DNA of 64,000 nucleotides from contig NC_092809.1 in the NCBI RefSeq assembly GCF_040954645.1, positions 64,108,141-64,172,140 of the forward strand, written 5' to 3'. Position 1 is the first letter of the stretch. Each line of letters opens with the position of its first letter. Source of the DNA: Diabrotica undecimpunctata. Taxonomy: Eukaryota; Arthropoda; Insecta; Coleoptera; Chrysomelidae. The notes beneath the pieces are model-generated. The model was given only the letters and a program-made list of their open reading frames with translations. It had not been told where the DNA came from and did no database searches. The position numbers and the translations under genes were made by a program. Positions 790-41,228 of the stretch are shown here, in pieces.

Positions 790-2830
790 GCAATAGTGAG
801 GCTAAAACGAATAGAAAAAAAAAAACTTCAGCAGAAGAATTTAACTATTTCAAATGTCAACAAAAGTAAAATCGAAAATGATGTAAACAATTACATAAAG
901 GAAATAAGAACAACCGAAAATGTTGAGAAAATATGCAAATTATTTCGTGCACATCTAAAAAAGATTGTGAAAGAATATAGTGTAACAATAGATTCAAGAA
1001 ACACCAATGCTTGACAAAAGAAATACTAGACGCTATAGAACAAAGAGGACAATAAAAAAATAAAGCAGACGAATACAGTAGAAAAAAAGAGAAATAAAAT
1101 AAAAACTAGGATTAAAGAAAAGTGAATGGCAGAACGATGTTCACAGATGAAACAGTTAAAATTACAAAAAAATTACATGTTTAATATGTATAAGAAAGTT
1201 CATGAATTGGTTGGCCTATAAGTATTATAAGAAAATCACTTATACTCTAGAAGATAATCCAGGAAGAGTTAATACTGATGAACGAGAAATACTTAAAACA
1301 TGAAGTTACTACATAACTCAATTATTCCAAGATGCCAGGCTAAACATAAAGAGCAATGTCAATCAAGAATGACCTAAAATTTTAAAATCTGAAGTTATTT
1401 ATGCAATAAAATTAGCCAAAACCAAGAAAGCAACTGGACCAGACAACATCCTAGCTGAACTTTTAAAAATAATACAAGAGAAATACATCAGCGCTCTAGT
1501 TAAGCTTTTTATGACTTACATATTACTGGTGAAATACCTGAAAAATGGCTTAAGTTGGTTTTTATAATAACTCCGAAGAAGTAGTAGGAAAAGAAACGAT
1601 GACTAGAGGTTAATTATTCTGATAAGCCACACATTAAAATTTTTCTTAGCATTATTAATGGAACAATAAATATTAATTCTGAAAGACACCTAGATGAAAC
1701 CCAGTTTGGATTTAGGAATACGCTGGCTTTCGTGAAACAATTTTTGGGTTAAATGTACTTCTTCAAAAACTCCGCGACCAACGTAAAGATATTTATGTGG
1801 CTTTCATCAATTAAAGAAGGCTTTCGAGCTTAGAGTAAAACGTGGAAAGCTTTTGAACATATTAAGAACCAAAGAAATTAATGATAGAGACATACGATGA
1901 GAGAAACTTATATTGGAATCAGAAAACAGTCGTACGAGTCCAGAGAAAATTAATCAAAACATGTTTCATTCAAAGAAAAGTCAAACAGGGATACATTCTA
2001 TCCTCGCTTTTATTTAATATCTACTTGGATATAATTGTCAAACATGCTTTGCAAGATAAAGATTGCAAAATTTTATATTCACTTTGAAGTGAGAATCAAT
2101 GGTGAACTGATTAGTAATCTTTGATATGTTAACGACACTGTTATTTTATGTAATATTCTATAGAGCCTTCAAGAAAAAAATCATATTTAGTTGTCAACTT
2201 CACAATAATGCTTTCCTATAGATATCTCAATTAAACATTAAAAGTTGCTCACTTTAAACATCTGAGATGCTACATTACAGTCCAACTAGACCCAAGTAGA
2301 GAGATCAAATGCAGAATTAAGGCGGCTGGCACAACGTTTCTAAAAATAAAATAATTCATCTGTAACTAAAGCTTCAACCTAAAATGATGTCAAATAATAA
2401 TAAAATGCTATATTTGGTCAGTGTTGTTACATCGCATCAAGATCTGGACTCTGAAGGCTATCAATCGCCTAGAGGCGTTTGAGATATGGTTCCGTAAAAT
2501 AATGCTCTGAATACCGTGGTCAGCGATGCAGACCAACGCAGCTATGTTAAATTGATCAAATGCCGTTAGTGAGTTATTTAATACAATTAAAATAAAGAAA
2601 ATTTAATACCTAGTGTACATTAGGGGAGACCAGTAATTCTTGAGGTGAAAGGTTACATTAAGGACTGCGTAGGAATTGGAAGGATGAAAGTCATGGCTTA
2701 AGAATATTAGCTATTAGACAGAAATATGCAGTGCCAACTATTTTAACCGGCTGAAGACCACGAATAATGCTCCAATAGAATTACCAACGTTGGTAAGACC
2801 TAATATGGCACAAAAAGAAGAAGTCATTTC
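790..2830 (+). pseudogene. Degraded RTE-like LINE (endonuclease-reverse transcriptase), relic
   Basis: A non-LTR retrotransposon polyprotein in pieces. An open segment at 796-1014 gives a lysine-rich linker typical of the region between endonuclease and reverse transcriptase. Near 1385-1470 one reads SEVIYAIKLAKTKKATGPDN, the early RT motif with its K-x-x-GPD signature. Near 1705-1810 comes a broken FGFR / VAFIN block (RT motif A region), and at 1965-2090 QGYILSSLLFNIYLD (RT motif B region). The C-terminal tail is traceable to about 2815. Frameshifts and stops occur throughout, and the YADD catalytic motif is reduced to 'YVNDT' near 2127. It resembles the family at 40047-41228. It cannot move autonomously. 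Confidence 0.8.
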
Positions 2831-13464: not shown

Positions 13465-15202
13465 TATAATATGTATTGTATGTTAAGGTCATCATCACAG
13501 ATAGTATGTAAGATGAAGCTTTCGTAAGTTATTTCTTTAAAAATATAGATGAAATTAAGTCTAGATCTAATTAGATTGTAAGTAATCTAATTAAATAAGA
13601 TTTTTCATCATAGTTTTATTCTTTTAATTTGCTTTTCCGGTTGTTTTAAAATTTATTCCTGTAAAAGATCTAAATAGGATTATTACTGCAGACTTACCGG
13701 CGTTCCCCATCAGTCGAACGGAACGTTCGGCATTTTTGATGAAACTGCGAATACAAGGCTTTATTTTGTTTTTCGCCATGTTTCATTGAGTGGTATCGAT
13801 CAGATTGCGCATTTTGGGTTACGACATTTTACAATCTGATTTAGCTTTTTATTCTGTATTACTTGTGCAAACATATGGAATTTTTTATTTTAAGTAACAA
13901 ATTTGTACTATATAGATCATTGACACAGATACAAGGGATTTAAGATGACAATTTTATAATCGAATTCATTACTATACGTAATTCATTTTTGGATATACAT
14001 CGACACTTGATATGAAAAACTTTTGTAATTCAGTATACGTAGTTTACAGAATGGCGGTTTCAAAAATTTGTTATAACACATTTTGTTGTTGAACTTCAGG
14101 TTTCGTAATTTTTAGTTTTTTATCAACTAGAAAATGGTTTTTAAGGGTGTTACAGTTGAAGTATATATTTTTATATAATCAAAAGTTAAATATGTGGTGT
14201 TTTTTTTTTGGAAGCTGTGGTTTTTCGATCTCTTGCTAAAATTATTGTGAAATTCGGATCATCTGTCTGAGTAAGACTTTAGCTTAGAAAAGTTTAATTA
14301 GTTTGGATAGCAATTAAGTTACTCACTGTTCTATCAATGAACAGATTTTAATCTTACTCTGAAAAGAGTACAATAAAAAAATATTTATATTTTGGTTATA
14401 TTTTGTTATATACATGTATCAAAAAATAGTATAGTCTCTACAAAATGTGTTTATTTTCATCTCGACATTGAACTTAATAACATTTATACTAAAAAAATAA
14501 TCTTTTATTACTCTACGGTAGGTTTGGCAGAAATCGAATAGCCCCTTTAGTGATCGATTGTTTCCTGGCTGCAGAAGAATGATTTATGATACAAAAACCA
14601 TTATTCGAACTCGATACACTCGAAAAGTTTGGTGTAGTTTACGGGATAGTCGCAATCAAAGCTTTACTTTCGCAATAATTTCTCTTTAATTTTTACCAAA
14701 CAATTTTTTTTGGAATTTTGAAAACAACAAATTCAAATAAAGAAATAATATTACCATAAAGAACTGTTTTCAGTGGCATATAAAAGTTAACTGAAACTAA
14801 ATAAACTAAGGATATAAAGATAGTATATCCATATATTACAGCCAAATAAAATGGAAGTTTTTTAAAAGTTGTAGTATACGAGTAAAATTTTAATTAGATC
14901 TAGAATATTATTACTTTGAAGACGATTTCTGAGGAGCAAATGGAAACAATCGTTACGAACCGAATTTTAGCATCGATCCTTTATTTTTCTGTTTGTTGTG
15001 TTCTGTTTGTTCTGATGCTCGCCTCAGGATTTCACTATAGATAAAAAACTAAAATACAACGCCACTATAGAAGCTTCGCTTTAAAAAAGCGACAAGTGAA
15101 CGGATAAAGGAGTATTTTTGCTATTCGGGTATTTGCTTATGCACGCGAACAAAATAAATAATTGATGAAAGAATGTACCCTCTTTGCCGCCGTTACATTT
15201 CG
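13465..15202. other. AT-rich stretch without recognisable gene
   Basis: Stops in all frames; no transposase or RT motif read on either strand. Confidence 0.5.
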
Positions 15203-16915
15203 ACTGGTTTTACTAAGACTGTAGTAACCCATTTTTTTACTCAATTGAGATAATTACAAAAATATATTTTCATCGTTATCAAAATGCATTAATCTATAAA
15301 ATGAATGTTGTTATAGCATTAAGTGATACTTTTAATAATGATCTTACAAGAGTAAAACAGATTTAAGAGAGAAACGGTAATACGTGACGTTTGAATGAGT
15401 TTAGTAATAAATACCAGAATTATTTGCTTCTCAACTTTATTTATATAAAATACTACATTTTGAAGAAGTTAGTGATCTAATTTGCAGTTTTGCATCTTAA
15501 TTCATCCTTTGCACTTTCTTGCATACTGTCCCCTCACTCTGGGTGTGGCCTTTTTCCAGAAATCTGTGAACAATATCAATGTGAAAATGTTCAGCAGAAA
15601 AAGCAAACATCGAAAACAGTCTTCCACAGTTGTCTGAGTAGAACATTATCGTTTTAACACGTTTAATGCTTTGCCTTGAAATCTAAAAATTTTCAGAGAC
15701 TACCGGCAATTTCATTTGAACCCCTTTTAGCTACCTGCTCATGCCAGACAGCAGTAAAACCTGATTATTTCCAACGTTATAAACTGTAAAGTTATATGTA
15801 GATTATTTGCTATTGTAGTAAAAATCACTTACGTTAGACAAAGGAGTGGCTGAAACCTTTTGAAAGTCAAGGCAAGCCACACACAAACTCTTATAATTTC
15901 ATCTAAGCTGTTTGTCCATGTCTTTTAAGTTTCTAATACCTTCTTTGTTTTACTGTCGGTAAACGGTACACTGGTCCTTTTTTCGTTTAAAGAACCCAGT
16001 ATTAAACTGTTCATTGAAAATATCTCTTTATTAACCTGACTTGGCAACTATAGTGATATTATTTTGTTCACAATAGTCGTTGTAAATCGATACACTTACT
16101 GGATATTTAGCCTTTGTTTAAGGTACAACTTCTTCGTACTCTTAAGCGTATAATGGCAAGGTACTACAGGAAACTAATTTAATCGATTTTTTTTTAGTTT
16201 TCTATAGGTTATGTGGTCTAATTATCCACCATCTTTTAGTTTTTATCATTCTGCACTAATAGTTATGTGTTTTTTATCAACCTGTCTCACATGACGAGCA
16301 ATAAAATCCCACTTTCTCGTATGATCTTTTAACTTTCAAAATTCATTGAAACAAAGGTGTCCATCTTCTTAATCTATTTTGGTAGCACATTTCAGTCTAC
16401 ATGTGTTTGCGCATGATGCACCTATTTATCTTCCTTAAATTTTAATGCCTTTTCGATTTCAATGTTCAATGTTTTAGATTTTTCATCCTCCTACTCACTA
16501 ACGTTTCTAATTGCTCTCCTACTTACTCTCTCTATATTGCCCCTGCTTCTTTTCTTTCTATTTGTGGCTGCCTCAATTATGTTCTTATTAAGTTTAATTA
16601 TTAATTCAGATATGTTTTCCTCTTCTATCGGAATGTAATTTGGGTCAGTATCGCAGTCTGCATGGAATGCTTCCTCATCTACAAAACTAGACTTTTAAAC
16701 ATAACCTTAAACTAGCGACGAACACCGTAGTAAACCATGGTACGATATCTGATGTTATCGCCTCGGATAACAACTAAAACTCAAGATATGACGATGTTCT
16801 ACGGTAGTTTTTCATAAATGGGAGATACTATAGAAGAAATCATTATGTTTTATTGTTTTGCACTATTTACTAAAAAGTGGAAAATTTAAGTTACTACAGT
16901 CTTCGTTGGACCAGT
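15203..16915 (-). mobile_element. TIR DNA transposon of GGQN type, minus-strand copy
   Basis: The left end ACTGGTTTTACTAAGACTG (15203) and the right end, reverse complemented ACTGGTCCAACGAAGACTG (ending 16915), match at 22 of the first 26 positions. CG follows on each outer side, a possible 2-bp duplication. The interior aligns with the plus-strand copy at 17505-21780: for example 16621-16680 with 17645-17700, 16300-16560 with 17770-18080 and 15480-15720 with 19550-19780. The sequence just inside the left end (15230-15320) aligns with 21650-21760. So the element ends are seen in two copies. Confidence 0.75.
15480..16690 (-). pseudogene. GGQN-type putative transposase, heavily eroded
   Basis: Minus-strand blocks in order: an acidic N-terminal DTDPN block (about 16660), a basic stretch (about 16560-16480), a FIARH-like block (about 16300), then ACLDFQKVSATPLSNVSDFY and YNFTVYNVGN (15880-15770), and finally a decayed DNCGG motif (15645-15630) with a histidine-rich EKGHT block (15560). 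The family is typified by D-N-C-G-G-Q-N followed about 40 residues later by G-H-T; these may be catalytic residues of a DDE-like fold (inference). Large deletions exist relative to 17505-21780. It resembles proteins annotated DUF7869, but that assignment is from memory. Confidence 0.6.
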
Positions 16916-17504
16916 CGATTTGCTCGTGAACATCCTTTGGTGGCCTGGTACAGACACGTTTACTTGCTCCCTCGCTTCTCCTGCTTCGTGGTCTAACTGT
17001 ATGTTTTTGATTGATCTAAGTATTTAACACTTAATTTAATTAAACTAACACTGTCACGCTGTCACACTGTCTAGTATTGTGCCACTGGTAATGAGATGCA
17101 GAAATAGACAATAAATACCTATATAAGAATAACTGTTTTTATAAGAATGTTTTACACAAAACGCGTCTACCTCTCCAGTGAAGAGATTTATTTTATTGTA
17201 AGTTCCAAGAAGCTTGGAAGCGCACGTGAATCGCTACAGTTTCTCCGCTCCGCTCGGTATCACGCTCTCAGCGCTGGCTCGGTATCCTGATCTATTATAC
17301 CAAAACTACAAAAGATGTCAAAGACGTCAACACTGTATATTATTTTGCTAAACTTTAAGAATTTATTTTTTTGTGTTTTGTTTAGAAAATGAAGGTTTAT
17401 TAAATGATGGCTGAATATGCAATTTAGAACTTCGTAATGACTAATATTAAATAAATTCATATTAATAGTACACAGTTATATTTCAAATGAATTATTACAA
17501 ATTA
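16916..17504. other. Spacer between the two inverted GGQN-type elements
   Basis: Contains a moderately GC-rich run at 16925-16995 and 17215-17290 but no readable gene. A minus-strand frame at 17495-17917 is antisense to the element next door. Confidence 0.45.
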
Positions 17505-18726
17505 ACTGGTCCAACAAAGACCAGTCCAACAAAGACCAGACCAGTGAAAAATATTACATATTTACCTCTTGTGTTTAATTTCAGTAAGCTTAGAAGAGAA
17601 TGAAACCAATGGAAATGAAAATGAAATAATTGAGAGGGAAAGCGATAAGGAACCATTTCATGCAGACTCTGATACTGACCCAAATACATTCCTACAGAAC
17701 AGCAAAACATCTCTGAAGTAATAACTGAAACTAATAAGAATATAACTAAGGCAACCACAAATAGAAAGAGAAGCAACAGCGGCAATATAAAGAGAGTAAA
17801 TAGGAAAAGAATTGGAAACGTTAGTGAGTGGGTGGATAAAAATCTAAAACAAACCAAAATCTGTGACTTCGAAAACTGGGAAAATCGAAAAGGTATTAAA
17901 ATTAAATGAAGACACATAGGTGCACCATGCGTAGACTAAATTGTGCTACTTAAATAGTTAGAGAAGATAGAGACCTTTTTTCACTGGATTTGGAAGTTAA
18001 AAATGGTTATACGAGATAGGGGAATTTTATTGCTCGTCATGGCAGTCAGGTTACCAAAAAACAAGTAACTGTTAGGCAGAACAACGGCCTCGAAGAAATT
18101 ACTCTCTACAGAGAATATTACTTTCTACATTCGCAATGAAACACAACGTGTTTACAAAACTATATTCTTGAAAACCTTAAACGGCAGAAACTTGGATCAC
18201 TACAGCATTAAGAAAACTGCAAGGTGGTAGATCATTGGAGGAAGATAAACGTGAAAAACATACTAACAGACCACATAAACTATAACTACAACCTATAGAC
18301 AACGTAAAAAATCACATAAATCAGTTTCCTGTAGTACCTTTCCATTATACGCGTAAGAATATGACGAAAATGTACCTTGAAGAAGGGCTAAATATTCAGA
18401 AAATGTACCGATTGTATAACAGGTATTGTGAACAAAATAACATTACTACAGTTGCCATGTCACGCCAGTATAGAGATATTTTCAATGAACAGTTCAATAT
18501 TATGTTCTTTAAACCAAAAAAGGACCAGTGTACTGTTTGTTCTGTTTTTAATATGGCTGGAGATGCTGAAAAAGCAAAATTGGTCGAAAAATACGAGTCC
18601 CATATCAAAAACAAAAAAGTTAACAAAAACTTAAAAACATAGACAAACAGCTTGCACTTAATGATACGTGCTTGTGTGTATCTTGCTTTGGTCTTCAAAA
18701 GGTTTTAGCCTTTGTCTATCAGAGTG

Positions 18727-19421
18727 GAGCCATAACCTCTTTTAGTTTACAGACCGGGCGATGCCGGTTGGGTGGCTACAATCATCATGCAACCCAACCC
18801 TCGCCATCCGAAAACCGACCTGATCCTGCTGGTCTGTTCCTCCCCGTTACGATCCGGAAATCAACAGACCAGAAGCGTATGGCCCGATATTTGGCAAGAT
18901 TACTTATCGCTCGAGAATCCACCACCCCCCTCTGCACTTACTAGTTTCGCCAAGCCAAATCGCAGGTCTTGAAAAAATTAGCATATATAACTATAGGAAA
19001 GTTATTAAAAAACATTTACAAATTAAAAAATAGTAATGATAAAGAAGTAAAATGGGATATAAACATGACATAGAAGACAACACAAACAAAGACGAACGTA
19101 GACCACACGATAGGAAAGAAGCCGGTATATATACTCGAAGTGAAATTCTCATAAGTCATTTATGTTAGGACCTCATAGAATGACTATGAATATGGATACT
19201 ACCTTGAATTGCCTTTGTGATAAAATTGCGGACGTCGAACCTAGAAAGGTTTAAAATTCCCCTGATAAGAGAATTCGACTGACACCAAGTTCCGCGAGCT
19301 CCAACGATTAAAGGTGCCATGAAAATGGTTTTGAATGGTCTGAAGGAATCGAGGCTCTGTGTACAGCGCCGTTTTATTGGCGGTTTTATTACCTGCTCAT
19401 CCTGTTGCGCGACATCGATTA
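18727..19421 (+). mobile_element. Unidentified ~0.7-kb insertion in the GGQN-type gene
   Basis: Comparison with the copy at 15203-16915 shows extra sequence between a point near 18726 and the resumption near 19422. Its first 230 bp are GC-rich (18745-18970) and contain an open reading MATIIMQPNPRHPKTDLIL at 18772, preceded in frame by further open sequence. The end near 19421 is AT-poor too. It may be a truncated LINE or a SINE-like retrocopy; no family is recognised. Confidence 0.5.
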
Positions 19422-19842
19422 AGTAATTTTTACTACCTAAGCAAATACTCTACATATAGCTTTACAGTTTTGTGATGTTGGAAATAATTAGGGTTACTGC
19501 TATGTCTAGCATGAGCAGGTGGCTAAAAGAAGTCCAAATGAAATTGCCAGTTGCCTCTGGAAATTTTTACATCTCAGGCTAAACATAGTATTAAATCGAT
19601 AATATTCTACTCAGACAACTGTGGGGGACAAAATAGGATTTTTTTTGTATTTTCGATGTTTGTTTTTGCTGCTGCATATTTTTACATTGATATTGTTCAC
19701 AGATTTCTGGAAAAAGGCCACACTAAGAACGAGGGTGACAGTATGCACGTTGTTAGCGAAAATGCAAAGAAAAGGCAATCGAAAGGTAAAAGAAATAATA
19801 AATTAGACTTACTCACAATCAATTTAATTTAACTAATCAAAC

Positions 19843-19886
19843 GACCGGTTTCGCTTTCTACAATATGCAAAGCATCTTCAGGTCAC
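19843..19886 (-). ncRNA. Hammerhead-ribozyme-like motif, copy 2 (inverted)
   Basis: Minus strand: CTGAAGA (complement of 19875-19881), stem II GCTTT/AAAGC, GAAA, palindromic ACCGGT, then C at the cleavage position followed by GTT. GAC upstream can pair with GTT. C at the cleavage site is the preferred base in known hammerheads. Confidence 0.45.
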
Positions 19887-20931
19887 GATACAAAGTTAAA
19901 TAAATGCTGAAAATAATAAACCCATATTAGGGTGTTGTCGAATAAAGATAAAACAAAGATAGGTGATATAAATTATATAAATTACAGTAATTATGCTAAT
20001 ATTACATGTCTGTGGTTTTTCAAAATGAATAAAATGTCTAAGCAGACAAGGTAAGACCCACAAATTGGTAAATTAGTCTATTAAACTATAATGAATTAAT
20101 AAATAAACAAATAAATAAAACATTACTTACATGCCGGTACTCTATTAATGGATGGTTGAAAGAACATGGTTCAAACTATCTTGTATTGTTGATTGGAGAA
20201 CTCAAGTCAGTTCTAGTTCTTTTAAAATCCTCCCCCTCCGTCTCAATTTTAATTTTTAACTTTATATATTGGACTTTACAACCATTTGCCATATATTGCA
20301 ACATAACTTTATCAAAGAAATTTGATAATTACAAGCTAATATAATTGCACATTCACACAATTTATACATCCATTCTTATTCATTGTCTCACAACTGTCAC
20401 CTTCCAAAACAAAAATAAAAATCTCAATAAATAACACACATTTCATAAATATATCTCCAGAATAAATATAAAAAACTTTAAAGAACTTAATGGTATAGAA
20501 CCTTTCCTTTCATCAAACAAACAATTACATTTACCTATCTCTACTTCATTGGATAAAATCTATCTCCTCAAGAACTTCCCCGTTTACTGTTAAACAATTA
20601 CAATAGTTGACTTGAGTTCTCCAATCAACAATACAAGATAGTTTAAACCATGTTCTTTCAACCATCAATTAATAGAGTACCGGCATGTAAGTAATGTTTT
20701 ATTTATTTGTTTATTTAGTAATTCATTACAGTTTAATAGACTAATTTACCAATTTGTGGGTCTTACCTTGTCTGCTTAAACATTTTATTCATTTTGAAAA
20801 ACCACAGACATGTAATATTGACATAATTACTGTAATTTATACAATTTATATCACCTATCTTTGTTTTATCTTTATTAGACAACACCCTAATATGGGTTTA
20901 TTATTTTCAGCATTTAATTAACTTTGTATCG

Positions 20932-20978
20932 TGACCTGAAGATGCTTTGCATATTGTAGAAAGCGAAACCGGTTGTCT
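20932..20978 (+). ncRNA. Hammerhead-ribozyme-like motif, copy 3
   Basis: CTGAAGA (20936-20942), stem II GCTTT/AAAGC, GAAA (20965-20968), palindromic ACCGGT, T, then GTC, which pairs with GAC immediately upstream of the box (three Watson-Crick pairs). Confidence 0.45.
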
Positions 20979-21780
20979 GATTAGTTAAATTAAATTGATT
21001 GTGAGTAAGTCTAATTTATTATTTCTTTTACCTTTTGAAATGGACTCACACAAGCAACACATTCATGATTTAAAAGGCAATCGGTTGTATATGTGTCAGA
21101 ACAGTGGGTCACATTAATCACAATGGCTAAAACTATAGAAAGAGTTTATGATGTTACGGAAATGTCTAAAGAAATTTTTTTAAATTTAAGTTGACAACGA
21201 AAAAAAAAATCAATAAAAGTTAGCAAAAGGCGAGAAATAAAATTTTCGCATGAACACCAAAATTCTATAACGTGTAGATACGAATTCGATGATGGTTTTA
21301 AAAGTTGTGACATAAAATTAAATCGAAAATGCAGAGAACGGCCTTCTACTACCATCAAATTTCCACCGAAACTGTATGATGCACAATTACTAATTATCGA
21401 AAAAAAGCTAAAAGGATTACTGTGGCTGTGTAATACTAGCAAATTACCATGGATTTTATAAAAATCGTAATCCAAAGAGTTATGTACGTCCTAAAGTCGA
21501 GCTCGAAGATCAGTAACTTCTTCAAAATATAGTATTTTATATGAATAAAGTTAAGAAACAAATAATTATGGTATTTATTACTTTATAACTATCTCCATCG
21601 AAAACTATAGTAACCCATTCAAAATTCACTTACGGCCATTTCTGTTTTATCCAATGTTTTATCCTAAACATCCATTTTATAGATTAATGAATTTTGGTAA
21701 CGCTGTAGATATATTTTTATAATTATCTCAATTACATACAAAATAAGTTAAGTTATTACTACAGTCTTCGTAGGACCAGT

Positions 21781-22671
21781 CAAAATGTATTAACATATCC
21801 GTCAGATTGTTCTATTGGTCAATTACGTATGGTTTTATTTTCATCTCTCTACGTACAAACAACAGCTTTCGCGAACAACACACTTCCCTCGCGTACTTAT
21901 ACAATCCTATTTTGTTTTTATGTGTTATTTTTTACAGCAACCTTATCTCTTATTACATAAACCCCATTTTCTGTTTTGTTTTTCCCGTCAACAGAAGCTA
22001 TTTAATGTTATAAATTAGGACCTGAAATTAGTCTGAGATTCCCGGTCCCCAGGATGATGCCATCATTTTATCTACGCAAAATCGCTACGCAGCAAATGTC
22101 CGAACCTGAAAGATTATTTATAGAACCCTATTTCGAAACAAGATTTTTGTAAACAGCCCGTACCGTCTGTGAATACGGAGACATAAACTTTTAAATTTGT
22201 ATTTTATACTGTATTTTATCTCGCAATATAAGATTTTTTAAATACCACAAGAAAAAATGATAGAACTCATCAAAATAGACATTGATTATAGACAAATTTA
22301 AAAATAAGTTTATTAAGCATCTATTCTTTTTTTAAAGACTTTTCAGTTTGTGATTACTGCAGAAATGGGAATTACCACGGTCACAAAATAAATGAAATTT
22401 AAACAAATAAATTGTGATGAGTTTTATATATGGACGTATAAATAAAGATTTATTATATCTTTATTTATATGTCCATGGTTTTATACCATTGTACATTAAA
22501 TGTATCATGCATGTTTCTATATTTATTTAAGGGTTGTGGGTAAATTACAAATAATAATTATTTTTTAAAAATATTAATGTAACAGCTTTCTCCGCAAAAC
22601 AAATCTTCGAGTAAAAGTTAGGAAACCAGTTTCAGTGTAAATAACAATACCTAACATCATTAGTTCTGCGA
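21781..22671. other. AT-rich stretch without recognisable gene
   Basis: Overlapping small frames at 21807-22018 lack motifs. Only a short hairpin (22430-22476) stands out. Confidence 0.5.
22430..22476. repeat. 20-bp inverted repeat (hairpin)
   Basis: Arm ATGGACGTATAAATAAAGAT (22430-22449) pairs with 22457-22476 at 19 of 20 positions around a 7-base loop. Confidence 0.8.
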
Positions 22672-24797
22672 CAGTTGACAATTTAACCAATTAAACCAAC
22701 GGAAGTAATTTTGTAGATACTATACAAGTTTGTAGATACTAAACCTGTTGCCCGATTTAAGTGATTTTTTTAATATGTTATAGCCTTATTTCTTGACAAT
22801 ATCGTTATAATAATATGGTTGCTAAACAGGTAAATTTTCATTGTATACCGGATGTACGAATTAAACTGTGTTTTTTTCCTCAAGTTTGCATCACCCTGTG
22901 GAATATTCTAGCATTTATAAAATATTGAAATTAAAACCTAACTATAGCCTCATGTTTTCTCAACATTTTGTTTGTTGATTCATTCGCTTATGTTGGATAA
23001 TACAAAAGTTAGGTAGTTTAACAACTAGCCATGTTTTTCATCAATACAGACGATTTAACTCACCAGCAAAATTAACCCCACCACCTTTATTATTGTTTTG
23101 TTTACATTACCTGTGACAGTTTTGTTTCCGTGTTAATAACAATTCTTGAACAATTTGTAATTAAAATTAAATTTCTAATTAAAATTGTAATTTTATATCG
23201 TTGTGAGCGAATATTGTTTAAGTTGAAATTTTAGTGCTTATTTATTTTTTGTGATTTTAAAAATGCCACTGGTTCCAACTGATGCTGCTAGGGCAGTGGC
23301 TTTAGTTGATGCTGGTTACAGTAAACGTCATATCGCTGGTATACTCGATGTACTGAGAACTACGGTACAAGATGCCATCAGATGATTTCGAGAGACAGGA
23401 TCGTACAACCGCAGGCCAGGTCAAGGCCGAAAACGATGCATTTCAGTTCGATATGACCGCTTCATTGTCACTAAAGTATTGAGAAATCGCTTTTGCACCG
23501 CTCCTGAAGATCGTAGGTCTCTTCTTGAGGTAAGAAATGTTAGTGTGAGTAGACAAACAATTAGAAGAAGACTGTCAGAAATAAACTTGAGGGCTTTTCG
23601 TCCAGCTCGCGCACTACAACTGCTCCCACAACACCGTAGGGCTAGACTTCATTTTGCGCGAGAATATGCTATTTGGACTATGGCGTAATGGAAGAATATA
23701 CTGTTTTCAGATGAGAGGAGAATAGCCCTAAAAAGTCCAGATGGACGCCAACGTGTCTATAGGCGTCAAAATGAAAGGTTTGCTGCATGCGCTATAACCT
23801 AACCAATGGCTTACCGATGAGGGTAAAAATAATTTGGGGAGGTATTTCTTACGAAGCGCGTACTGATCTTGTTGTGTTCGGTAGAGGCAGTGGAAATGCC
23901 CAAGAATACGTGTAAGAAGTTCTCCAAGACCATGTCATACTTTTTGCACCATTCATTGGTGATAACTTCAGACTGATGCATGACAATGCACGTTGCCATA
24001 CAGCAATATCTACCCGTGAGTACCTTAATCAGGTCGGGATTCAAGTTCTACCATGGCCAGCACACAGTCCTGATATTAACCCAATTGAGCATATCTGGGA
24101 CAACCTCAAAAGACAGGTAAGAGCAAGAGTACTAGCTCCTGCATCATTTGAAGAGCTTAAGACAGCTGCGGTAGAGGAGTGGCACAATATCCCCCAATCT
24201 GATATCCAGGATATCATGAATGGATTGCCAAACCAGCTCCAAGAAGTCCTAAGGGCTAGAGGCGGCAGCACCCATTATTGATACCTAATTTTTTTTTTTT
24301 CAATTAGACTTTGATTTCCAAAATATTGTTAATTTGAATTTTCTTCGAAGATTTTATTCTTTAGATTTTTACTGTAACAAATGACTTTTTTTCAAAAAGA
24401 TTATTTCTTCTCTTCCGCGGAGATAAAAATTGATAAAAAACATGTCTAGTTGTTAAAGCACCTAACTTTTGTATTATCCAGCATAAGCGAATCAATCAAA
24501 AAACAAAATGTTGAAAAAGTATGAGGCTATAGTTACGATTTAATTTCAGTATTCTACAAATGCTAGAATATTCCACAGGGTGATGAAAACTTTAAGAAAA
24601 AAACACAGTTTAATTTGTACACTCGGTATACAATGAAAATTTAACTGTTTAGCAACAATATTATTATAAAGATATTGTCAAGGAAGAAGGCTATAACATA
24701 TTAAAAAAATCACTTAAATCGGACAACAGGTTTAGGAGTTATAAGAAATCAAAAATTACTAATTTTTAAGGTGGCCGGTTAATTTTGGCCCAGAGTG
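22672..24797 (+). mobile_element. Tc1-like DNA transposon with long terminal inverted repeats
   Basis: 22745-23045 is repeated in reverse complement at about 24440-24760 (compare CCTGTTGCCCGATTTAAGTG with the complement of the stretch ending 24760). The right end, reverse complemented, reads CACTCTGGGCCAAAATTAAC and is followed by TA (24798-24799). The left terminus is eroded; its start near 22672 is approximate. The element encloses a DD34E transposase. Confidence 0.85.
23263..24281 (+). pseudogene. Tc1-family transposase (DD34E), inactivated
   Basis: ATG at 23263 opens MPLVPTDAARAVALVDAGYS, a paired-like helix-turn-helix typical of Tc1/Tc3-type proteins, followed after one stop by FRETGSYNRRPGQGRKR, the GRPR-like linker. 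The first catalytic Asp is in ILFSDERR (about 23700). After frame breaks between 23690 and 23975, the second Asp is in LMHDNARCHTA (23970-24002) and the Glu in SPDINPIEHIWDNLKRQ; 34 residues separate them, the DD34E spacing of the Tc1 clade. The C-terminus ends RARGGSTHY. Total span is close to the usual 340 residues. At least two stops plus frameshifts prevent expression, although all catalytic residues remain. Confidence 0.9.
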
Positions 24798-24799
24798 TA

Positions 24800-25341
24800 T
24801 ATGCAATAGATAGTCACTGAAAGTGAAAAGTAGGTAAAACTTTCCAATTTTTTTCGAATTGCATGGACTTTCCTGAAAATTAGTATATCAATTCATCCGT
24901 CTCCCCACTTTATATTGCCTCGGGCTTTTCTTGTTTGAGGTAAAAATTACCCTTGTATAAAAAAATTCGAAAAGTCTAAATTTACGTATTTTAAAAATTT
25001 ACGTTCAACTAAATTAAATACATTACTTTATACCGTTAAAATCCTTAAAAGCACCTCCTTCAAATCCGAAAAAATAGAGAAAAAGGTTATTAGCAGCTTA
25101 AAATGAACTTTTGTTGTATTTTGTCCCCCCAACCTTCAAGCCACTAGCAAAAAGCTGGAGTATGTCCGGCTAGTTGAACCCTGTCACGCAGGGGAGTGGG
25201 TCGGAGTTCTTTTGACCAAAACAGTTGTAAGAATGGGCGCCAGTCCCTTCCAACGGCTAAGAATGTTTTAATTTTGGAACAACCAAGAAATAAAATGAGC
25301 CTTAATGTAAACCCAACATGAACTGACTCTTCTTATTAATG
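24800..25341. other. No gene recognised
   Basis: Includes a somewhat GC-rich run at about 25120-25260 with no readable frame. Confidence 0.45.
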
Positions 25342-25503
25342 ACTATTTAAATGGAAATAAGCCACAATTAAAGGTTAAAATACGTTTATTGACGTTTCAA
25401 TTTCCAGTTCGGAAATCGTTCTCAAAATACAAACATTAGTAAATTTAATTTAACAATAAACGTATTTTAACCTTTAATTGTGGCTTATTCCCATTTAAAT
25501 AGT
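25342..25503. repeat. Palindromic MITE-like repeat
   Basis: Arm 25342-25391 (ACTATTTAAATGGAAATAAG onward) and 25454-25503 are near-perfect reverse complements. The centre carries, on the minus strand, GATTTCC-gaact-GGAAAT followed by TGAAACGTC, a stem and GAAAC-GUC arrangement like a degenerate hammerhead half. Similar GAAACGTC blocks recur at 63764-63800 and 63917-63950. Confidence 0.75.
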
Positions 25504-26052
25504 AATTAATTTAAAATGCCACAAGAAAATAGCTTCAGAACAATATTAAGAGACTCTTCTTATAAACAAAAAAACTAAAATAAATGAAAAAATCACGGAA
25601 TCGGTATGTGCTGACAAAACAAAAAAAAAAAGATCAATCCCGAATCAACCAATACACTCCTTTTACAAAAACTATACTGAAATTTTGTCAGTAACGTAAC
25701 TTGTTGACTTATAGACATAAATAATAGTTTAATAAAAAAATATAAATTAAACAACCTGTATAAGTTAATATTACGATATAAAGTTATTGGTAATATAATA
25801 TTATTCTCAGAATCATCACATTTTTCCCCAATTATAACTTCTATCCAAATTTTAAGAGACAAGCGTTAATTGGAAATAAAAAGTTTATTCCAAAACTAAA
25901 ACCATTCTTTAATTACAAAGTAAAAGGGGAAATCCCAGTAGTTGGCTATATGTCATAGTTTAAAAGAACTTACCAATAAGTAAAAACTTCTGGAATATAC
26001 TGGTATATTGTTTTATTAAAAAATAATTAAAATTTATCCAAAAGGATAAAAA
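25504..26052. other. No gene recognised
   Basis: An 89-codon minus-strand frame at 25593-25862 shows no motif. The sequence from about 25980 probably belongs to the repeat carrying the hammerhead-like motif that follows. Confidence 0.4.
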
Positions 26053-32974: not shown

Positions 32975-35900
32975 TAGGTACTCTGCGAAAAGTATGCCGG
33001 ATTTTTCTTCTTGTAACCATGATGGAAGGAAATTTCAATGCGCTACCGTTTCTTTCCAAGACATTAGACGTTTCCATCACAACTTGTACTCTTAAAAAGA
33101 TAAGGTTTACGAAGATAATTTTATTCTGAAGTTTTCTTCATCAATAGAAGTTAAAATAAGAAGACCAACTTCTGGACGATACAAAAGACGACCTATGAGG
33201 ACTTTATAACATTAAAAGATAAATCCGTGATGCCTGTATGTCTTAACACGTTTATAGGTGTACTCCATGTTTCACGATTTCGGGAAAAAAGTATTTTGAA
33301 GCGAATCAGAGAAACCGGCCAGTTTTGTAAAGAAAACAGATAGTTATCTGTTGTCTGTATCTTGTTGTCTGGTTATGCAAAAATCATCGATTTCTTGGCA
33401 AAATTTTTCGCAGATATCTGAAGTTTTTAAGACATAGGTGGGGGTTACTAGATGATAAATAGATAAAAAAGTACTCGTATTGATACCTTGCGTTTTTTTA
33501 ACAATAACTTATGGTCACAATTTGATTTTTTGTCGTATAACGTTTTTCCCTTATATTTTACATAAACAATATTTATATCGTTTTTTTATATCAAGAATAT
33601 CTTTATTTTCCCGTTTTTAAATTAAAATTGATAAATAATTTACGGAGATATTTGCATTAATTTTTTTTATTAACAACATAAAATATTACTAATACATTTG
33701 AACATCGAGGAATTACCGTCTTTTAAATTTGTGCGAAATTTCCCCTGATCGATCAAATAGTTTAAAAGTTATTTAATTTATTTATCCCTTAGGCTAAATA
33801 TTTAAACTATTGAACTTGCTAGAATTGATGCTAGACACATTTAGCCGATTTAATAGGAATCTTTAAGACTAAAACTACCTCAGAAGTTAAATGCATATTG
33901 CGTTTTCATTGAAATTATTTACAAAATAAACGTTTAAAAAAGGGGTATGGTTTTTACTTATAAACAATTGTAATAACTTCTATATCTTTCAAGCTACAGA
34001 CTTGTACGTACAACCATTGGATAGCTGGTAAAAAAACTCACATTAAAAAAAAACCTTTTATGACCAATAGGAACAAAATTAGGGACTATTTTTAAAAAAA
34101 ATCATATCTCCATTGTTTATATACATTAAGAAGTACAAATTTTGAACGAAAATATAAACTTTGTATTGAAACTTATAGCTAAAAAATTCATCTAATTTTT
34201 CGAAACTTACAGCCCTTCGAAACGAAGGTACTTTCGAAAGATCGACATAGGAAAGTGGAGGAGATAACTGTTTCAGCTCCATTTTTTTTTCGAGATTGGA
34301 ACTTCAAATTGAAACACGTAGGAAAAATTTCGACTTCCATTGCAGCTTTTTTTTAACAATAATTTATGTTCACAATTTTATTTTTTGTCTCTAACTTTTT
34401 TCCCTTATATTTTACATAAACAATATTTATCATTTTTTTATATCAAGAATATCATTACTTTCCGGTTTTTTTTTAAATTAAAATTGGTAAATAATTTACG
34501 GAAATATTTGCAAAAAAAGCAATTTTTTTGCAATAATTTATAAATTTTATGAATTTTTTTTTATTAACAACATAAAACATTATTAATACATTTGAACATC
34601 GAGGAATTACCGTCTTTTAAATTTGTGCGAAATTTCCCCCCAATCGATTAAATAGTTTAAAAGTTATTTAATTTATTATTTCCCTGAGGCTAAATATTTA
34701 AACTATTGAACTTGCTCTAATGATGCTAGACACATTTAGCAACTGTTTCAGCTCCGTTTTTTTTTTTCGAGATCGGAACTTCAAATTGAAACACGTAGGA
34801 AAAAATTACATTATCTCGGCTTTCATTGCAGCTAGAAGCCTTTTTTTTTTAATCTGGGGTAACTCGTCGAAATATGAATAAGTTTATAGTTTTCACTGGC
34901 CGGGAAATATGGGAAACCTCGGAATAATTGAGTCCATTTAAAATTCACCGTAAAAACTTACTTTTTTTTTAATTTGGCTGGAATAGTCTCTCGCCGTATG
35001 AATAATGATGACATAATTTTTATCTCGGAAAATCCCGGAAAATCAACATATATTTTTTTATCATTTTATATTAATGAATATAGATATTTTATAAATTTCA
35101 AGTAATTTTTACACATTATAGTATTGTATTCCTTATAGGGGGGGGGGGGGGTAAAAATTATGTAATTATTATTAATACTGCGACATACTATTCCAACAAA
35201 ATTTAAAAAAAAGTTTTTACGGCCAATTTCAAATGGACTCAATTATTCCGAGGTTTCCCATATTTCCCGGCCAGTGAAAACTATGAACTTATTCATATTT
35301 CGACGAGTTACCCCAAATTAAAAAAAAGGCTTCTAGCTGCAATGGAAGCCGAGATAATGTAATTTTTTCCTACGTGTTTCAATTTGAAGTTCCGATCTCG
35401 AAAAAAAAAACGGAGTTGAAACAGTTGCTAAATGTGTCTAGCATCATTAGAGCAAGTTCAATAGTTTAAATATTTAGCCTCAGGGAAATAATAAATTAAA
35501 TAACTTTTAAACTATTTAATCGATTGGGGGGAAATTTCGCACAAATTTAAAAGACGGTAATTCCTCGATGTTCAAATGTATTAATAATGTTTTATGTTGT
35601 TAATAAACAAAAATTCATAAAATTTATAAATTATTGCAAAAAAATTGCTTTTTTTGCAAATATCTCCGTAAATTATTTACCAATTTTAATTTAAAAAAAA
35701 CCGGAAAGTAATGATATTCTTGATATAAAAAAATGATAAATATTGTTTATGTAAAATATAAGGGAAAAAAGTTAGAGACAAAAAATAAAATTGTGAACAT
35801 AAATTATTGTTAAAAAAAAGCAAGGTAAAAATACGAGTATTTTTTCATCTATTAGTTATCTGGTAACCCTCACCTATGTTTTCAGGTTCGGATATCTGCA

Positions 35901-37230
35901 AAAAGTTTTCGACCTTTTTTTTTAACCAGACTGAAATGTTCAGATCCTCATCACTGTGCCAAAGACAAGGGCAGAAAATATCTTTCTGCTGAGTTAAATA
36001 TTAGAAAAATGTAGAAAAGGTATATCAATTCACTCACAAAAGATCAGAGTGATTTAAAAGTAACACACTGGTACTTAAGGTCAATTTTCAACACGAAGTG
36101 CAATCATGTCTTCGGATCCCCTAGAGCAGACGTTTGCTTTACTTGTCTATAGTTAGATGAACGATTAAAACACGCACAGCAAGGTAACGAAAAACAGGAG
36201 CTCATGACTTAAAAACGTGTTTATAAGCTATGTGCTAAGGCTTTTTTAAAATCACTAAAATGCTCTGACCCAAAAATTTTGATTTTTAGTTTTGATTGTC
36301 AAAAAAACCTAGCCTTGGCCAAATTACCAGATCAAGTCACTTATTATAGTAGGCAAATCTACGTTTACAACTTCACTGTGTTCAAAGGGAATGCTTAAAG
36401 TAAACTGACTCCGGATAATGTGACATCCTACATTTGGACAGAAAACGAGTTTAAAAAAGAATTTATTGAAATTGCTTCGTTTATTTTGGATACATTCAAA
36501 ACAACAGAAATGGAAACCCCTATTACTACTGTGCGATTAGGTAGTGATGGATGTGGGGCCAGAATAAAAATTGAATAGTCGATGCTATGGTTTGGTTCTG
36601 CTATCCAAACTTGCACCAAAAAATGTAAGTTTCCCATGTAATAAAAGAGTTCTTTCTTCCCATAACAGGTTCTAGCTATCTTCCACCAGATCGAGTATTT
36701 GGAGTCTCAGAAAAGTGTATGAGAAAAAAATAGGTGATTTACAAACCATCAGAGGACATTGATATTATAGCCAAATATTTGAAAGTAGTAAAGATTGGCC
36801 AATACTGTGACATATTTGACTGAAAGAAAAAAAATAATGTATTCATGAAAAAGCCGGCACAATTTCATTTTCAACAAGGGACCTGCAAAAGGATTATTCT
36901 GACAAGAACTAAATTTAAAAATGTTTTCGTTAGAGGTGAGTACACATACAATTCAGACATGGGTGTGGCAAAGTGTTTAAGCAAGCCAGGAAACTGCTTT
37001 TGGACATGAAACCAAACTTGATTTCTTTCTAAAACTCGACGAAACCAGTGAATAAAGTTGACGTCAACAACTTGTTGAAGAGGCATTATTGGGACCAATG
37101 GAAGAACGATGAGAACTTACTCTTCTACAAAAATGTCATCAATGGGGTTGACGACAATGCAGAAACCAAGTCAGTTTGTGAACACATCGAAGAAGTCAAC
37201 ATCCTTAATGTTTAAAAATATGTTAGTCTA
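32975..37230 (+). pseudogene. GGQN-type putative transposase, third subfamily, split by a foldback element
   Basis: N-terminal half (32975-33355): DFSSCNHDGRKFQCATVSFQ, RRFHHNLYS, RRPTSGRYKRRPMRT, then VCLNTFIGVLHVSRFREKS and IRETGQFCKENR. A foldback occupies 33398-35913. C-terminal half (35940-37230): SSHCAKDKGRKYLSAELN, HVFGSPRADVCFTC, then ILIFSFDCQKNLALAKLPDQ and VTYYSRQIYVYNFTVF (36270-36380), LTPDNVTSYIWTENEFKKEF, GSDGCGARIKI (the DGCGGQNK motif, mutated, about 36543-36573), VIYKPSEDIDIIAKYLKVVK. Several stops and shifts. The order of blocks parallels the other GGQN relics, supporting a single superfamily. Confidence 0.7.
33398..35913. repeat. 2.5-kb foldback element with ~1-kb arms and internal duplication
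   Basis: The left end GCAAAATTTTTCGCAGATAT and the right end, whose reverse complement reads GTCGAAAACTTTTTGCAGAT, begin arms that continue with GACATAGGTGGGGGTTACTAG and its counterpart ACATAGGTGAGGGTTACCAG. A segment of about 370 bp is present at 33490-33860, again directly at 34345-34740, and inverted at 35410-35815. The blocks 34740-34970 and 35205-35410 are also inverted copies. The centre carries a 14-G run (35138-35151). No coding capacity. It disrupts the surrounding GGQN-type gene. Confidence 0.85.
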
Positions 37231-39865: not shown

Positions 39866-40046
39866 CTAAGAAATTACAGTACGTTTAGGTACAAGTTACT
39901 AAAGTATTTTTGTATATATATTTGGGTATCACATGCAGCAACTTAAACTTATTAGTTCGTAAGGTTCCATTATTATTCAATTTGCAGTTTGTTTACATTT
40001 TGCAATGGATTGTATATTTTATTTATAATACAGCACCATTAGCTTA

Positions 40047-41228
40047 ATGTCTCATACGCTAAAGTTACTACTTAAAGTCATCCATAACCGAATATATCAC
40101 AAACTGGACATAGACGTTAATAATACACAATTTGGTTTTCGCAAAGGCCTAGGAACACGTGAAGCTCTTTTTTCACTTAATATACTAATACAAAGATGCC
40201 TGGACGTCAATCAAGATATATACGCATGTTTTATTGACTATAATAAAGCATTCGATAAAGTACGACATAAACATTTAATGAATGTCCTGAAATCAAAGAA
40301 GATTGACTACAACGACCTCAGGATCATATCAAATTTATACTATAAACAGCGAGCAAAAGTACGTGTTAACGAACAGCTGTCAGAAGAAATTGAAATTAGA
40401 TGTGGAGTAAGACAGGGATGCGTATTGTCGCCAATTCTTTTCAGTGCCTACTCCGAAGAGGTCCTGAAAATAGCTCTTGAGAGTGAAACAGCTGGAATAA
40501 AGGTAAATGGAGTCCCCATTAGCAACATTAGATATGCGGACGACACTGTAATCTTAGCTGAAAACATTGAAGATCTTCAGAGACTGGTGAGCAGAATAGC
40601 AGAGTATGGAAAAGAGTATGGTCTAACAATGAATGTCAAGAAGACGAAATTTATGAGAATATCGAAAACTCAAAGAAATAACGAGAATCTTCTAATAAAC
40701 GAAACCAACGTCGAACAAGTGGACAAATATGCATACCTGGGAACAATGATTAACTCCACAAATGATTACAATCAGGAGATAAAAATAAGAATAGAAAAGG
40801 CTAGAGCAAATTTCAACAAAATGAGAAGAGTTCTATGTACCAGGGATTTAAAACTGGAACTAAGAGTTAGGTTGGCGAGGTGCTATGTTTTTTCGACTTT
40901 ATTTTATGGAATGGAATCTTGGACCTTGAATGCGACATCAATGAAAAAACTGGAATCATTTGAGCTGTGGGTGTACAGAAGAATTCTGAAAATATCATGG
41001 ACAGAACACGTCACAAACAAAGAGGTTCTGGGAAGGATGAACAGAGAAATGGAAATTTTAAATTCAATAAAAACAAGAAAATTAGAATATCTCGGACATA
41101 TTACACGTGGAGAGAAATACACCTTGCTCCAACTGATTATGCAGGGAAAGATCCAAGGAAAGAGAAGCATAGGGAGGCGTAGAATGGCATGGCTGCGCAA
41201 CCTGAGAGATTGGTACGGATGTACATAA
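40047..41228 (+). CDS. RTE-like LINE reverse transcriptase, 5'-truncated, longest open frame in the window
   Basis: 393 codons open. The reading actually enters upstream as STISL before the Met, so the ATG is an internal codon and the element is truncated near 40032. RT motifs: FGFRKGLGTREALFSLN, CFIDYNKAFDKVRHKHLMNV (motif A, catalytic Asp), CGVRQGCVLSPILFSAYSEE (motif B), IRYADDTVILAE (catalytic YADD), NVKKTKFMRISKTQ, KYAYLGTMIN. C-terminal: YGMESWTLNA, VYRRILKISWTEHVTNKEVL, LEYLGHITRGEKYTLLQLIM and GRRRMAWLRNLRDWYGC. A one-base shift at about 41226 ends the frame; the true tail continues as NELFRTAVSKV...AMMIADLRRGD to about 41310, followed by GAAGAAGAAG. The RT catalytic residues are intact, but the N-terminal endonuclease is absent, so it is not autonomous. 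Confidence 0.9.
   Translation: MSHTLKLLLKVIHNRIYHKLDIDVNNTQFGFRKGLGTREALFSLNILIQRCLDVNQDIYACFIDYNKAFDKVRHKHLMNVLKSKKIDYNDLRIISNLYYKQRAKVRVNEQLSEEIEIRCGVRQGCVLSPILFSAYSEEVLKIALESETAGIKVNGVPISNIRYADDTVILAENIEDLQRLVSRIAEYGKEYGLTMNVKKTKFMRISKTQRNNENLLINETNVEQVDKYAYLGTMINSTNDYNQEIKIRIEKARANFNKMRRVLCTRDLKLELRVRLARCYVFSTLFYGMESWTLNATSMKKLESFELWVYRRILKISWTEHVTNKEVLGRMNREMEILNSIKTRKLEYLGHITRGEKYTLLQLIMQGKIQGKRSIGRRRMAWLRNLRDWYGCT

What the first reader, a model, noticed from the sequence alone, without database searches (positions are those of the whole stretch)
15203..21780. Two inverted copies define the ends of a GGQN-type DNA transposon of unclear superfamily
Gene relics with DNCGGQN and GHT-NEGDSMH motifs occur in two copies of opposite orientation. 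Both copies are bounded by the same inverted termini (ACTGGTCC..ACGAAGACTGTAGTA). Proteins of this kind are, as I recall, often annotated as uncharacterised (DUF7869-like) rather than as transposases. Termini conserved in two copies are direct evidence that this one moved as a unit.
Basis: partly seen in the sequence, partly recalled or inferred. Interest (0 to 1): 0.75.

Follow-up and report, generated by a model that had tools for sequence, protein, structure and literature searches.

The report
DNA transposon with DUF7869 transposase
Two decayed copies of a jumping gene lie here in opposite directions; relatives in the same genome are nearly identical to one another, so it jumped recently, and they suggest that a protein family of unknown function (DUF7869) is the enzyme that moves it.

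Summary
Window 15201-16917 (minus) and 17503-21782 (plus) are two old, independent relics of one TIR DNA transposon, each with its own AAAT duplication. The terminus is not confined to this locus: the genome holds 267 matches (reversed control 0). The true terminus starts two bases further out (31-bp TIR, CGACTGGTCCAACGAAGACTGTAGTAACTCA). Of 41 copies, 33 carry perfect 4-bp duplications, AWWT-like (shuffled mean 8.3, maximum 16); empty sites were read for two insertions. Of 30 near-full-length copies with exact ends, 29 differ from their majority by 0.30-1.15%, and two spliced copies keep open frames of 716 and 677 codons: a recent burst. The protein is DUF7869. AlphaFold models of an insect-type and a protist-type homologue show an integrase-like core. 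D388, D465 and D506 are the acids kept throughout, so the triad is probably DDD. A second family (52% protein identity) has related termini and an ATTT duplication. AWWT duplications and a DDD enzyme match published descriptions of Sola/Sola2, but no Sola sequence was at hand: membership is untested.

The parts
15201..16917 (-). Copy 1: internally deleted relic of the transposon, 1717 bp, both termini kept
   Evidence: Aligns from end to end, with internal deletions, to young copy L070, 11.6% mismatches over 1677 aligned bases; TIR hits at 15203-15227 and 16891-16915
15197..15200 (.). Target-site duplication of copy 1, left (ATTT on +; AAAT in element orientation)
   Evidence: Sequence, scored
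16918..16921 (.). Target-site duplication of copy 1, right (ATTT on +)
   Evidence: Sequence, scored
15530..16679 (-). Transposase gene remnants of copy 1 (P0001 residues 37-505 in three pieces)
   Evidence: tblastn with P0001; 19 stops counted over the tblastn pieces, which may overlap
17503..21782 (+). Copy 2: relic of the transposon, 4280 bp, with a 5' deletion and two later inserts
   Evidence: 9.1% mismatches to young copy L070 over 2222 aligned bases
17499..17502 (.). Target-site duplication of copy 2, left (AAAT)
   Evidence: Sequence, scored
21783..21786 (.). Target-site duplication of copy 2, right (AAAT)
   Evidence: Sequence, scored
17503..17543 (+). Damaged 5' terminus of copy 2: about 19 bp of TIR, then a 15-bp tandem repeat
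21756..21782 (+). 3' TIR of copy 2
   Evidence: the outer CG reads CA here
17560..21507 (+). Transposase gene remnants of copy 2 (P0001 residues 8-674 in pieces, interrupted by the two inserts)
   Evidence: tblastn with P0001; 15 stops counted over the tblastn pieces
19542..19832 (+). Catalytic-core remnant of copy 2 with FYSDNCGGQN and GHTKNEGDSMH
   Evidence: weak Pfam DUF7869 match, E 0.0046, 17 bits, below the cut-off of 26
18719..19419 (.). Later insert in copy 2 (701 bp), not part of the transposon
   Evidence: L070 positions 1790 and 1794 stand on its two sides
19782..21071 (.). Later insert in copy 2 (1290 bp) that contains a fold-back element with 431-nt arms (19779-20209 / 20608-21038), not part of the transposon
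2207..2603 (+). Empty site: repeat copy that lacks the transposon found in its relative at L060
   Evidence: Joined flanks of L060 align across the junction, 302/401 identical, one AAAT, no gap at the junction
35865..36602 (+). Remnant of a more distant DUF7869 gene (22-30% identity to the five best-covering homologues)
   Evidence: tblastn

Best explanation
The two relics are old members of a cut-and-paste DNA transposon family whose own transposase is a DUF7869 protein. Steps: the transposase binds the 31-bp terminal inverted repeats and probably the imperfect copies of the same motif just inside the ends (inferred). An RNase H-like core with three aspartates (P0001 D388, D465, D506) cuts both ends out of the donor and joins them to target DNA with a 4-bp stagger (fold predicted, chemistry inferred). 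Repair leaves a 4-bp duplication at an AT-rich, roughly palindromic target, about AC[AWWT]GT (shown by duplications and empty sites). The family was active recently (shown by near-identical copies and open frames); the two window copies descend from an older wave.
Confidence: 0.9

Rival explanations
1. The element belongs to the Sola superfamily, nearest Sola2: a DDD transposase with AT-rich 4-bp duplications. This is a classification of the best explanation rather than a different mechanism.
For: PMC3627910 (passages): Sola2 elements have AWWT / ATAT, AAAT, ATTT 4-bp duplications and short TIRs. PMC10741241 (passages): Sola encode a 'DDD-TPase', 4-bp TSDs, TIRs of 11-1124 bp, mostly 2-9 kb. 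Here: AWWT-like duplications, 31-bp TIR, about 3 kb, D-D-D conservation, relatives in a diatom and an oomycete.
Against: No Sola transposase sequence could be fetched, so homology is untested. The original Sola paper and the paper on the catalytic domains of all superfamilies were not held.
Confidence: 0.6
2. DUF7869 transposons are a superfamily of their own, unrelated by descent to any named one beyond the RNase H fold.
For: No paper in the held library contains DUF7869 or PF25273. No Pfam, PDB-sequence or viral-fold match at the limits used names a transposase. Insect-type and protist-type branches are homologous along 499 aligned columns.
Against: The library is partial and Repbase was not searchable; duplications and triad match Sola2 descriptions.
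Confidence: 0.3
3. The enzyme is a DDE type related to the hAT/P/MuDR/Kolobok group, with E513 as third acid and D506xxH509 as their C/DxxH signature.
For: In insect-type sequences H509 and E513 are nearly invariant (87 of 88 and 88 of 88). [quoted passage not shown]
Against: In the 121 protist-type homologues position 513 is K or R in all and 509 is F in 117, while D506 stays D in all.
Confidence: 0.1
4. The two copies are a local segmental inversion, or relics moved by some other transposase with DUF7869 as a passenger gene.
For: The copies are only 585 bp apart and inverted, and no experiment ties the protein to the ends.
Against: Separate duplications for each copy and unrelated flanks; 267 dispersed termini. 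The gene gives the longest plus-strand frames in the five near-full-length copies read, and two families with related TIRs both carry it.
Confidence: 0.04

Closest known systems
Sola2 transposons (as described for dictyostelids in PMC3627910, passages)
   Same: 4-bp AT-rich duplications of the AWWT type, short TIRs, one large transposase; Sola described as DDD (PMC10741241, passages)
   Different: Sequence relation untested; the dictyostelid Tpase has 888 aa against 716 aa here; those elements also carry Fanzor genes, which I did not look for beyond the frames
Pfam PF25273 (DUF7869)
   Same: P0001 and the other four homologues scanned pass the curated cut-off (34.9-38.3 bits against 26)
   Different: Pfam gives no function; the window piece itself scores 17 bits, below the cut-off
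Retroviral integrases, Tc1/mariner (Mos1), TnsB/IstA: RNase H-like DDE recombinases
   Same: Predicted core fold and order of elements; first two acids at the ends of b1 and b4
   Different: No convincing sequence similarity to any PDB chain; third acid probably D; Tc1/mariner duplicates TA (PMC10045372 passages), here AWWT
piggyBac and Kolobok (4-bp duplications)
   Same: 4-bp duplication; piggyBac is also DDD (recalled)
   Different: Both insert at TTAA (PMC9587614 passages); none of the 33 perfect duplications here is TTAA; termini start CG

Membership tests
Cut-and-paste TIR DNA transposon (DDD/E type) | Terminal inverted repeats shared by dispersed copies | tested here: met
   31-bp perfect TIR; 267 matches, control 0
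Cut-and-paste TIR DNA transposon (DDD/E type) | Fixed-length target-site duplication and empty sites | tested here: met
   33 of 41 perfect 4-bp duplications; empty sites for L060 and L048
Cut-and-paste TIR DNA transposon (DDD/E type) | RNase H-like core with three conserved acids | tested here: met
   By prediction only:
Cut-and-paste TIR DNA transposon (DDD/E type) | Excision and integration by the encoded protein | not testable with these tools
   Needs a bench assay
Pfam PF25273 DUF7869 | Score above the gathering cut-off | tested here: met
   P0001 38.3 bits against 26; the window piece 19542-19832 alone has 17 bits, not met
Sola (Sola2) | 4-bp AT-rich (AWWT) duplications | tested here: met
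   First base A in 32 of 33, last base T in 33 of 33 perfect duplications, second base A or T in 31, third in 29, against PMC3627910 passages
Sola (Sola2) | DDD transposase | tested here: met
   By conservation only: D388/D465/D506, against a PMC10741241 passage; catalysis not tested
Sola (Sola2) | Sequence homology to a reference Sola transposase | not tested
   No reference sequence could be obtained
piggyBac / Kolobok | TTAA target-site duplication | tested here: not met
   No TTAA among 33 perfect duplications
hAT/P/MuDR/Kolobok/Dada group | C/DxxH between second D and last E, conserved through the family | tested here: not met
   DxxH and E513 hold in the insect-type sequences only; F/Y/I and K/R in the protist-type homologues

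The most novel reading that the evidence does not exclude
DUF7869 is the transposase of an unnamed superfamily of eukaryotic DNA transposons, present from beetles, moths and an aphid to a diatom and an oomycete, with a D-76-D-40-D triad, CGAC-type TIRs in this genome and a palindromic ACAWWTGT-like target. Many proteins now annotated as uncharacterised would then be transposases, and a recently active member exists in this genome.
Probability: 0.3. Interest if true: 0.65.

Novelty: new member of a known kind. Interest (0 to 1): 0.5.

Why it matters
It gives a mechanism to a widespread domain of unknown function: the DUF7869 gene sits inside a unit with defined ends, target duplications and empty sites, and is predicted to fold like an integrase. 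Many insect proteins carry the domain under names such as 'uncharacterized protein', so the result bears on gene annotation and TE classification. Because copies are young, the ends, the target rule and the candidate catalytic residues can be tested directly.

Tried and rejected
Rejected: segmental inversion (unrelated flanks, separate duplications). Weakened: E513 as catalytic acid; it was my first candidate for the triad. Led nowhere: phage tblastn with one 118-aa piece (no match), viral fold library (nothing at E <= 0.001), PDB by sequence (one chance hit at E 0.068, none), literature for CGGQN (4 papers, none on transposons by title), DUF7869, PF25273, Diabrotica plus Sola (unrelated by title). 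Sola, hAT, P or MuDR structures do not appear among the listed PDB rows, which excludes nothing. Passages only were seen of PMC10294476, PMC4455052, PMC5718144, PMC12477816 and PMC7913693; none gave a Sola sequence. The search of the genome with family PF25273 did not complete.

Host: not named by any tool. P0005 (Diabrotica virgifera LOC114326041) is 98% identical to P0001, and genome copies are up to 99% identical to P0001, so a Diabrotica-like leaf beetle is my inference. P0001 and P0131 come from sources without an organism name; 'insect-type' stands for P0001-P0092 and 'protist-type' for P0093-P0213, most of them unnamed (three of the latter are named: Pythium insidiosum and Amphora coffeaeformis twice).

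Full report
Observation. Repeat and alignment searches show two copies of one element in opposite orientation, 71.7-82.9% identical in five blocks. Copy 1 is 15201-16917 on the minus strand; copy 2 is 17503-21782 on the plus strand. Copy 1 keeps both ends (one with 3 mismatches). Copy 2 keeps its 3' end and about 19 bp of its 5' end, followed by a 15-bp tandem scramble and a jump to about position 601 of the element. Two later inserts lie in copy 2, 18719-19419 and 19782-21071.

Genome-wide test. The terminus pattern (up to 3 mismatches) has 139 forward and 128 reverse matches in the host assembly (1.74 Gb), against 0 and 0 for the reversed pattern. The tool listed 100 of the 267 places, all exact matches. 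I took from that list, by eye, the 38 inward-facing pairs less than 5 kb apart and fetched them with flanks. With copy 1, copy 2 and L003 that makes 41 copies. Because both ends had to be exact, the 38 lean towards young copies.

Ends and target. When the element starts at CG, 33 of 41 copies have a perfect 4-bp duplication; shuffling right flanks among copies gives a mean of 8.32 and a maximum of 16 in 2000 shuffles. Of the others, 4 have one mismatch, 1 two, 2 three and 1 four. Of the other offsets and lengths tried (offset 0-4, length 1-8), only length 2 at one base further out stands out (35 of 41 against 9.7), which is part of the same signal. Among the 33, the first base is A in 32 and the last is T in 33; the base before is C in 22, the base after G in 20. 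This gives a roughly palindromic target around AC[AWWT]GT, and explains why both window copies, which share AAATGTA on their 3' side, looked as if homology ran past the ends.

Empty sites. The joined flanks of L060 align without a gap at the junction to window 2207-2603 (302 of 401 identical), with one AAAT. For L048 the genome search with joined flanks scored 40 of 274 candidates and gave 41 matches: its own flanks split as 1-100 and 97-200, showing the 4-bp overlap, and the 39 others have query ranges that span the junction. I read 10 of those 39 (L074-L083): none holds the element; 8 are gapless through the 40 bases around the junction, L080 has a one-base gap at the duplication and L082 a two-base gap further out.

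Age. Of the 30 fetched copies between 2.75 and 3.25 kb, 29 are 0.30-1.15% from the majority and L040 is 9.1%. Copy 1 and copy 2 are 11.6% and 9.1% from young copy L070, which roughly sums to their mutual distance, as expected of separate descent from one old family. A spliced reading of two copies, L036 and L067, with GT-AG introns gives 716 and 677 codons; intron limits were set by eye. The protein search of the genome scored 65 of 32,543 loose candidates and gave 74 matches, many 96-99% identical to P0001, some without stops.

Second family. Two places 52% identical in protein, with open frames of 672 and 683 codons and no stops, were read. L084 is a 3129-bp element with a 31-bp TIR that shares 25 of 31 bases with the first, and ATTT on both sides; in L085 only the 5' end was found within the stretch fetched.

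Class. From passages of PMC3627910, Sola2 elements have 4-bp AWWT duplications; from a passage of PMC10741241, Sola encode a DDD transposase with 4-bp duplications. Both fit. piggyBac and Kolobok do not fit by target (TTAA; PMC9587614 passages). The insect-type DxxH..E resembles the hAT/MuDR/Kolobok signature (PMC10045372 passages) but is not kept in the protist-type sequences. Without a Sola sequence I leave membership open, with 0.6 for Sola and 0.3 for a superfamily of its own. The claim that DUF7869 is not in print rests only, in a partial library.

Noticed in passing
22730-24744: Tc1/mariner-type element with 316-nt inverted arms (90%) and transposase pieces (HTH_Tnp_Tc3_2 at 23386-23688, DDE_3 at 23916-24281).
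   Followed up: no
19779-21038: Fold-back element with 431-nt arms, 97% complementary, inside copy 2; AAAAGGCAATCG stands on both sides of the insert, with some 20-30 extra bases between the right arm and the right repeat.
   Followed up: partly
18719-19419: 701-bp insert in copy 2, with a GC-richer stretch by eye near 18750-18930, unlike the element; not identified.
   Followed up: no
35865-36602: Remnant of a distant DUF7869 gene, 22-30% identical to several homologues.
   Followed up: partly
40029-41225: 399-codon open stretch that looks by eye like a non-LTR reverse transcriptase.
   Followed up: no
25335-25510: 57-nt inverted arms, 96% complementary, 62 nt apart: MITE-like.
   Followed up: no
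Homologues P0082, P0087, P0148, P0164: DUF7869 proteins joined to an OTU cysteine protease domain (P0082, P0087) or also labelled PF02037 (P0148, P0164): transposases with accessory domains, perhaps worth a survey. In P0082 the DUF7869 match (19.3 bits) is below the cut-off.
   Followed up: no
L024/L025, G000:C2:124423679-124440194: An inward-facing terminus pair 16.5 kb apart: either a nested insertion or a very large element.
   Followed up: no
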